Assembly (NCBI GenBank): GCA_003216355.1
Contig: QCIX01000006.1
Span: 1 to 64,000, forward strand
From: Prochlorococcus sp. AG-402-N23
Lineage (GTDB): Bacteria > Cyanobacteriota > Cyanobacteriia > PCC-6307 > Cyanobiaceae
Length of the DNA stretch: 64,000 nt
Direction: 5' to 3'
In this document: one piece after another, positions 57,476-58,719 of the stretch
How the letters are laid out: every line of letters begins with the position of its first letter
Position numbering within the stretch: position 1 is the first letter of the stretch
Made by a program: the position numbers and the translations under genes
The notes under the pieces: model-generated
Database searches by the model: none
What the model was told of the DNA's origin: nothing
The model's input: the letters and a program-made list of their open reading frames with translations, nothing else

Positions 57476-57553
57476 CTTACATACCACTTACATACCAGAG
57501 GAAATTTAAAGGTATTAATTTGACCTGATTAATAACACTTATTGGTATGTAAA
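57476..57553. repeat. Left 11-mer array: two tandem CTTACATACCA plus inverted TGGTATGTAAA
   Basis: 57476-57486, 57487-57497 (perfect tandem), inverted copy 57543-57553. Confidence 0.9.
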
Positions 57554-57662
57554 TTCTGGGGATTGAGAATTTGGTAATGTCTATTGATAAACTTGCATTT
57601 CAAAAAAATTAAATTATCTAATATAAATTTTTAGTCATAAATTCTTTTCTAAAAAGAATGGT

Positions 57663-58412
57663 TTATCTATATTCAAATCCAGGGGGACTCCCGCCTAATT
57701 CCTTCAACTCAACTGGATAGTAGGTGAATCTGAGAATGTTACCATTGATCGCTCTTTGATCTCCATATTTGAATTTTTTTGGCCACATATAAACACTTCC
57801 ATCTACAGATAATTCATAGGCAAAATATCTTGGGCCATTAGAACTTAAAATAAAATTATTATGTTTGTCTGTAAAAATACATTTAGTTTCTCCAAACGAA
57901 CCCCGCTTCCAATCCCATCGTAATTTTTCAAAACCAATGTGATAAATTTTATTATCACTTGCTAAATATGGCCAAATTCCATACATTCCTCCATATTCGC
58001 CATTATCAATAAATTCCAAATACTCGTTTTTTTCTTTGTTTTTGAGTATCAAATAAATATCAGGACGTCCACGAAATTCTCTTGTTATGCCATTCTTTTG
58101 ATATTTAAATACCGTATCACTTTCATCAATAATCAAAACTGTATTTACTGTGGGAAACTGAAAGTCAAGGTTTTCATAATTATCAAACCACTTTTCCTGC
58201 AAGTTATAAATATTAGAAGCATCAAAATTTTGTAAAGAAAAAATTTCCAACCTATTACCAATTATTAAGTCAGATATTTGTATATTCTCCTTGCCAGATA
58301 ATGGACCACCTATAACCTTCCCATAACAATCACGAGCTTTTATGCTTTCTTGAGAAATAAATAGTGAAACAAATACTATTAATAAAGATTTTAAAGTTAG
58401 TTTCATAAACAT
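57663..58412 (-). CDS. Putative secreted protein of unknown family (element cargo)
   Basis: 249 aa; signal-peptide-like MFMKLTLKSLLIVFVSLFISQESIKA; only substantial ORF in the element. Confidence 0.75.
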   Translation of the reverse strand: MFMKLTLKSLLIVFVSLFISQESIKARDCYGKVIGGPLSGKENIQISDLIIGNRLEIFSLQNFDASNIYNLQEKWFDNYENLDFQFPTVNTVLIIDESDTVFKYQKNGITREFRGRPDIYLILKNKEKNEYLEFIDNGEYGGMYGIWPYLASDNKIYHIGFEKLRWDWKRGSFGETKCIFTDKHNNFILSSNGPRYFAYELSVDGSVYMWPKKFKYGDQRAINGNILRFTYYPVELKELGGSPPGFEYR

Positions 58413-58649
58413 CTAAAGAAGATTAATTTCTTTAAGAAATAAAATTTAAGCTTGAATATAAATGTAGAACATGAAAAATATTATACAAAAGTATTAAAAA
58501 GATTTTTACATAAGCTTCTAAGAGGTCAAAATAAATAATTAAAGTAATAAGTATTAAAGTTAGGAGCTATGCAGTTCTTGCATACCTCTCTCTAGATGAT
58601 TAACATTTCTTGAAAAAATTTTTGTGATGAAAATAGTTGAAATACTTTT

Positions 58650-58719
58650 TGATATGTAAGTTCTGGGTACTAAAAAAGGAGTCCAATTTTGACTCCACTT
58701 ATATACCACTTACATACCA
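58650..58719. repeat. Right 11-mer array: inverted TGATATGTAAG plus tandem CTTATATACCA-CTTACATACCA
   Basis: 58650-58660, 58698-58708, 58709-58719. Confidence 0.9.
58674..58696 (-). terminator. Rho-independent terminator (minus strand) abutting right array
   Basis: Minus strand GGAGTC-AAAATTG-GACTCC then TTTTTT. Confidence 0.8.

What the first reader, a model, noticed from the sequence alone, without database searches (positions are those of the whole stretch)
57476..58719. Matched arrays of an 11-mer (CTTACATACCA) at both ends of the tRNA-Phe element: candidate recombinase arm sites
Seen: left end has two perfectly abutting copies (57476-57486, 57487-57497) and one inverted copy (57543-57553). 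Right end has an inverted copy (58650-58660) and two abutting copies (58698-58708, 58709-58719). The inverted copies share a longer context, TTGRTATGTAARTTCTGGG. So the same 2-direct + 1-inverted composition lies about 90-150 bp inside each att repeat. Established: lambda-type integrases use short arm-type repeats at both ends next to core sites. Inference: these are arm-type or accessory-factor sites that would let an integrase supplied in trans recognise this mini-element.
Basis: partly seen in the sequence, partly recalled or inferred. Interest (0 to 1): 0.85.

Follow-up and report, generated by a model that had tools for sequence, protein, structure and literature searches.

The report
Integrase-less tRNA cassette with arm sites
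A 1.5-kb, one-gene DNA cassette sits in a Prochlorococcus tRNA-Phe gene without an integrase of its own, but both its ends carry the same 11-letter binding sites, in the same layout, as larger integrase-carrying elements of other ocean cyanobacteria, so it is most likely moved by an integrase supplied from elsewhere.

Summary
The six 11-mers are real (3 exact, 3 with one mismatch). They lie just inside both ends of a 1,490-bp element bounded by a 31-bp repeat of the tRNA-Phe 3' end. Of 110 tRNA-Phe loci of the genus with the flanking gene in place, 79 are empty (gene about 91 bp from the tRNA) and 31 occupied; subtracting 1,490 bp from the window leaves 90 bp. Other occupied loci hold small elements with different cargo genes but the same end layout: two abutting direct 11-mers plus an inverted one about 68 bp further in (left), and an inverted one about 48 bp before two direct ones (right). 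The 11-mer differs between elements but agrees between the two ends of one element (23 of 29 elements; 0 of 344 pseudo-elements). Integrase-bearing elements at tRNA-Phe and tRNA-Cys share the layout; one, in Prochlorococcus AG-402-I21, has the window's own 11-mer. Its integrase belongs to a family already reported beside these two tRNAs (PMC10187409) and folds like lambda Int. Arm sequence tracks the integrase N-terminus. Best reading: arm-type integrase sites of a non-autonomous cassette mobilised in trans. Binding and movement are not shown. The arm layout and integrase-less cassettes were not found described in papers I could read.

The parts
57359..57389 (.). distal att repeat: 31-bp copy of the tRNA-Phe 3' end (acceptor plus T arm)
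   Evidence: identical to 58849-58879; 26-nt core of the repeat also duplicated at other occupied loci
58849..58879 (.). proximal att repeat, overlapping the 3' end of the intact tRNA-Phe gene
58854..58928 (-). intact tRNA-Phe (GAA), the integration target
   Evidence: ARAGORN; Rfam RF00005
57476..57486 (+). left arm-type site 1, CTTACATACCA
57487..57497 (+). left arm-type site 2, abutting, CTTACATACCA
57543..57553 (-). left inverted arm-type site, TTTACATACCA (1 mismatch), 67 bp from site 1; in integrase-bearing relatives this copy lies just 5' of the integrase start
58650..58660 (-). right inverted arm-type site, CTTACATATCA (1 mismatch), 48 bp before the right tandem
58698..58708 (+). right arm-type site 1, CTTATATACCA (1 mismatch)
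58709..58719 (+). right arm-type site 2, CTTACATACCA
57428..57442 (.). palindrome GTATCATAGTGATAC between core and left tandem, conserved in many left ends including integrase-bearing ones; candidate accessory-factor site (function inferred)
   Evidence: alignment
57663..58412 (-). single cargo ORF, 249 aa, N-terminus resembling a signal peptide (by eye), no Pfam/NCBIfam match; homologue in the related element of G210 (L028)
58818..58833 (-). terminator-like hairpin at the right end, in place of the host terminator downstream of the tRNA
57343..57355 (-). host terminator-like hairpin that follows the tRNA directly in empty sites, here displaced to beyond the distal att
56857..57276 (+). conserved host gene (139 aa) marking the left flank; about 91 bp from tRNA-Phe at empty sites (context, not part of the element)

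Best explanation
The stretch 57361-58853 is a non-autonomous integrative cassette in tRNA-Phe. The 11-mers are arm-type binding sites for the N-terminal domain of a lambda-like tyrosine integrase of the picocyanobacterial tRNA-Phe/tRNA-Cys family. In the excised circle the joined ends would read: inverted arm, two direct arms, core (tRNA T arm), two direct arms, inverted arm. Shown comparatively: clean insertion at the tRNA, an intact tRNA kept, the same arm layout in integrase-bearing elements, the same 11-mer in one of them, conserved ends around unrelated cargo. Inferred: that the integrase of an AG-402-I21-like element binds these arms and integrates or excises the cassette in trans, and that such cassettes arise by internal deletion of autonomous elements followed by cargo exchange.
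For: Empty/occupied comparison: 79 empty loci (gene-tRNA spacing median 91 bp), window 1,580 bp = 90 + 1,490; tandem 11-mers near the tRNA in 22 of 31 occupied and 2 of 79 empty loci, the 2 being AT-rich repeats. Matched tandem arms at both ends in 23 of 29 elements, both inverted copies too in 17, against 0 of 344 pseudo-elements and 0 of 580 shuffles. Fixed spacings across unrelated 11-mers: left tandem to inverted mostly 67-73 bp, right inverted to tandem mostly 43-48 bp; 79-83 and 55-59 bp in one tRNA-Cys subgroup. Ends conserved, cargo different. Integrase: catalytic Arg/Lys/Arg/Tyr invariant, fold closest to lambda Int. L157 (AG-402-I21) carries a 493-aa integrase and CTTACATACCA arms, left 22-mer identical to the window's. 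A decayed relative, G570, carries near-identical arms beside an integrase N-terminus with 42% identity to L157's. Arm distance tracks integrase N-terminal distance: Mantel r 0.63, p 0.0002, n 14.
Against: No integrase of this family was found in the window's own genome, though that assembly is about 81% complete. Three of six arms have a mismatch. No circle or excision event was observed. Related genomes are not independent, which inflates the Fisher and Mantel statistics. The commonest cassette class (CTAACATTCCA/CTTACATTCCA) has no integrase partner in what was searched. The window's left end has no integrase start codon where relatives have one, so the cassette could be a dead relic.
Confidence: 0.86

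Rival explanations
1. A dead relic: the arms are true integrase arm sites, but the cassette is a decayed autonomous element (CIME-like) inherited vertically and no longer mobilised.
For: Deletion intermediates exist: G570 keeps the integrase N-terminus fused to the tail of another element gene, L036 keeps only the N-terminus; no integrase in the own genome; single mismatches in three arms.
Against: Between elements with alike ends (76-95% identity) the cargo is often unrelated, which simple decay does not give. The same arm class recurs in different genomes at a site empty in most relatives. Arms are better kept than the sequence between them.
Confidence: 0.25
2. The 11-mers are operators for a host or element transcription factor, or iterons of a replication origin, not integrase sites.
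For: Short direct repeats are typical of both; the left inverted copy lies directly before the start of the integrase gene in autonomous elements.
Against: Present at both ends of the elements at fixed spacings, absent at empty sites, and varying with the integrase N-terminus. Cassettes without an integrase or replication gene keep them. Overlap of the integrase promoter with arm sites is expected for integrase autoregulation (KplE1, PMC2951348).
Confidence: 0.05
3. Sites of an excisionase or other accessory factor rather than of the integrase itself.
For: Excisionases of lambda-like systems also bind short direct repeats near att (general knowledge). Correlation with the integrase cannot exclude a co-inherited small protein.
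Against: Lambda Xis sites lie on one side of the core only (general knowledge); here both ends carry the sites. The sites track the integrase N-terminus somewhat more than its C-terminus (r 0.60 vs 0.51, same set). Whether a conserved small gene accompanies the integrase was not surveyed.
Confidence: 0.07

Closest known systems
Picocyanobacterial tRNA-Phe/tRNA-Cys integrase elements (cluster158946 integrase; PMC10187409)
   Same: Same integrase family by description: Prochlorococcus and Synechococcus, beside tRNA-Phe or tRNA-Cys, often with a small serine recombinase, closest template lambda Int 1Z1B.
   Different: That paper describes integrase-bearing islands and states that the mechanism is not yet known; a term search found no repeats, att sites or integrase-less derivatives in it. 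The window element has no integrase.
CIMEs (cis-mobilisable elements) and other hitchers
   Same: Keeps both att ends, lacks integrase and transfer genes; accretion with another element at the same site is seen in relatives (L140, L046).
   Different: Very small (0.65-1.7 kb for most here), usually one cargo gene, cargo exchanged between conserved ends, several arm-sequence classes at one tRNA.
Phage lambda and Tn916 integrase arm sites
   Same: Short arm-type repeats inside both ends next to a core site. Tn916 is remembered as having paired direct repeats bound by the Int N-terminal domain (own knowledge; no paper on it was read).
   Different: Here 2 direct + 1 inverted at each end, in an integrase-less element, with many sequence variants of one layout.
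Tycheposons (Hackl et al. 2023)
   Same: tRNA-flanked integrative elements of Prochlorococcus carrying cargo.
   Different: Described as 4-200 kb (PMC10872708), with integrases that PMC10187409 places apart from this family. The original paper was not available.

Membership tests
Integrative element of the tRNA-Phe/tRNA-Cys integrase family | Direct repeat of the tRNA 3' end at both borders, intact tRNA kept | tested here: met
Integrative element of the tRNA-Phe/tRNA-Cys integrase family | Clean empty site in relatives | tested here: met
   79 empty loci, spacing median 91 bp; window 90 bp after subtracting 1,490
Integrative element of the tRNA-Phe/tRNA-Cys integrase family | Encodes the family's integrase | tested here: not met
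   only one cargo ORF; none in the own genome. Filed as a non-autonomous derivative, not as a full member
Integrative element of the tRNA-Phe/tRNA-Cys integrase family | Same end layout and 11-mer as an integrase-bearing element | tested here: met
   L157
Lambda-type arm-type integrase sites | Short repeats inside both ends, fixed relative to the core | tested here: met
Lambda-type arm-type integrase sites | Bound by the integrase N-terminal domain | not testable with these tools
   only indirect: arm distance vs N-terminal distance
Lambda-type arm-type integrase sites | Core with inverted half-sites around a 7-bp overlap | tested here: inconclusive
   the T arm CCAG-ATTTGAA-CTGG fits, and identity of left att copies stops after ATTTGAA in several elements; strand exchange not shown
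CIME | attL and attR kept, integration and transfer genes lost | tested here: met
   definition
CIME | Derived by deletion from an autonomous element | tested here: inconclusive
   intermediates in relatives (G570, L036), not shown for the window itself
Tycheposon | Size 4-200 kb and own tyrosine recombinase | tested here: not met
   1.49 kb, no recombinase; definition
MITE of a DDE transposon | Terminal inverted repeats and short random target duplication | tested here: not met
   31-bp tRNA-derived direct repeat at the borders; no terminal inverted repeat at the borders among the 25 longest listed

The most novel reading that the evidence does not exclude
Marine picocyanobacteria carry a pool of one-gene, integrase-less cassettes at tRNA-Phe that are moved in trans by autonomous elements, with compatibility set by an 11-bp arm code read by the integrase N-terminal domain: one fixed layout, many sequence dialects, cargo exchanged between conserved ends. 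This would be a site-specific, single-copy counterpart of integron cassettes.
Probability: 0.45. Interest if true: 0.82.

Novelty: new variant of a known kind. Interest (0 to 1): 0.7.

Why it matters
The published description of this integrase family says its integration mechanism is not yet known (PMC10187409). The ends described here make it testable: core, arms, spacing and a partner integrase can be named. If trans mobilisation is right, much small-scale gene gain at tRNA-Phe in Prochlorococcus comes from cassettes that island searches miss because they have no integrase, and the arm dialects give a rule for which helper moves which cassette. The matched set of integrase N-termini and 11-mers is also a natural data set for reading arm-site specificity.

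Tried and rejected
Chance: rejected by shuffles, pseudo-elements and empty sites. Duplication of the tRNA 3' end as source of the arrays: rejected. Phage origin: integrase family not found in IMG/VR by pattern scan nor in INPHARED; class A arms not in viral contigs; the one viral hit for another class (L185) shares no att and no integrase and looks like chance or a chimera. Pfam, NCBIfam and PHROGs gave no credible name for cargo or integrase, and a PDB sequence search none for the integrase; only the fold search did. A first scan that demanded all four bases in the 11-mer missed the CTAACATTCCA class and was redone with a G+C rule; the redo was chosen after seeing that miss, but its controls (344 pseudo-elements, 580 shuffles) were run with the same new rule and stayed at zero. 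The original tycheposon paper is not held.

Full report
Observation. Seven matches with up to one mismatch stand against 0.85 expected, and the tandem occurs nowhere else in the 1.31-Mb assembly. They lie inside a 1,490-bp unit bounded by a 31-bp copy of the tRNA-Phe 3' end (57359-57389, 58849-58879) next to an intact tRNA-Phe. The unit holds one sizeable ORF of 249 aa without a family match.

The site is a real integration site. A conserved 139-aa gene lies a median 91 bp from tRNA-Phe at 79 loci of the genus; in the window it lies 1,580 bp away, that is 90 + 1,490. For 17 of the 19 att-duplicated loci in this count the same subtraction gives 74-99 bp; the other two (L024, L064) have more DNA between gene and att. 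The host terminator that follows the tRNA at empty sites is displaced beyond the distal att, and the element's right end carries another.

The arms are a family trait. A genus-wide search for the tandem hit 15 of 267 genomes, nearly all beside tRNA-Phe. About 115 tRNA-Phe loci were then fetched. A scan told nothing of the sequence (only the 11-bp unit, allowing 14 bp at the left) found a tandem at the left end matched by a tandem at the right end in 23 of 29 elements and in none of 344 pseudo-elements or 580 shuffles; 17 also had both inverted copies. This scan was the second version: the first wrongly demanded all four bases in the unit. Spacings are nearly constant whatever the 11-mer: left tandem to inverted mostly 67-73 bp, right inverted to tandem mostly 43-48 bp, with one tRNA-Cys subgroup at 79-83 and 55-59. 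Classes seen: CTTACATACCA (window, G210), CTAACATTCCA/CTTACATTCCA, CTTCCATACCA, AGTACCATTCC, TTGTACTGCAA, GTGTACTCCAT. Similar classes can match across elements, so the dialects grade into each other (cross comparison).

Ends are conserved, cargo often is not. Between elements with alike ends the left 125-165 bp and right 110-260 bp align (about 76-95%) while the middle encodes unrelated proteins; some elements of one class do share cargo, and the window shares its cargo with the 3.06-kb element of G210.

The integrase. A 4.4-kb tRNA-Phe element of G134 led to a family of about 460-517-aa proteins in 8 of 267 genomes of the genus and 21 named Prochlorococcus/Synechococcus-group records; wherever a tRNA was found downstream it was tRNA-Phe or tRNA-Cys (one record showed only a tRNA-Val upstream). 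Arg, Lys, Arg and Tyr of the tyrosine-recombinase site are invariant, and the model's best structural matches are lambda Int, XerA and Cre (mean pLDDT 75.7 and low TM-scores, so fold-level only). The G134 copy carries an in-frame stop. This matches the family reported by protein-language-model annotation, which gave the two tRNAs and the serine recombinase but no att sites or mechanism (PMC10187409).

The helper candidate. The 6.78-kb element of Prochlorococcus AG-402-I21 (L157, QCHZ01000005.1) has a 493-aa integrase at its left end, a left tandem identical to the window's over 22 bp, an inverted TTGGTATGTAA just before the integrase ATG, and TTTACATACCACTTACATACCA plus an inverted copy at the right. 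The G182 element (GTTCCATAC arms) has almost the window's coordinates (112/123/181 and -204/-156/-145 against 112/123/179 and the same right-end values). G137's integrase element and the 8-kb integrase-truncated L036 share AGTACCATTCC arms. Over 14 integrases, arm distance follows N-terminal distance (Mantel r 0.63, p 0.0002). Shared ancestry contributes to this, so it supports but does not prove recognition.

Origin of cassettes. G570 has near-class-A arms, an integrase N-terminus, and then a stretch resembling the tail of another gene of the L157 element: most simply an internal deletion. L036 keeps only the integrase N-terminus. Two loci show elements side by side (L046, L140).

Limits. No binding, no circle, no movement was shown. 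The window's assembly is 81% complete and has no such integrase. Many genomes are single-cell assemblies. No held paper was found that describes these arms or cassettes, but the original tycheposon paper and most subscription papers could not be read.

Noticed in passing
window 57428-57442; left ends of many elements: Palindrome GTATCATAGTGATAC between core and left tandem, conserved in several arm classes and in integrase-bearing elements; possible accessory-factor site.
   Followed up: partly
window 57543-57561 and 58650-58668: The window's left inverted arm shares TTCTGGG context with right ends, unlike left ends of relatives; perhaps copied from a right end.
   Followed up: no
L036 (G216), 8.07-kb element: Cargo of C5 cytosine methyltransferase-like, helicase-like and GHKL ATPase-like ORFs (named by eye from the sequences): a possible defence module carried by an integrase-truncated element.
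   Followed up: no
L019, L023, L024, L025, L064: Cassettes whose main ORF is a short protein with variable EEKPVE/EDVKPA repeats, differing in repeat number.
   Followed up: no
L157:206-216, L188 (G570): The left inverted arm lies directly 5' of the integrase ATG, suggesting autoregulation as reported for KplE1 intS.
   Followed up: partly
L161, L162, L166, L167, L169-L171: tRNA-Cys integrase elements share the layout; one subgroup has longer spacings (79-83 and 55-59 bp).
   Followed up: partly
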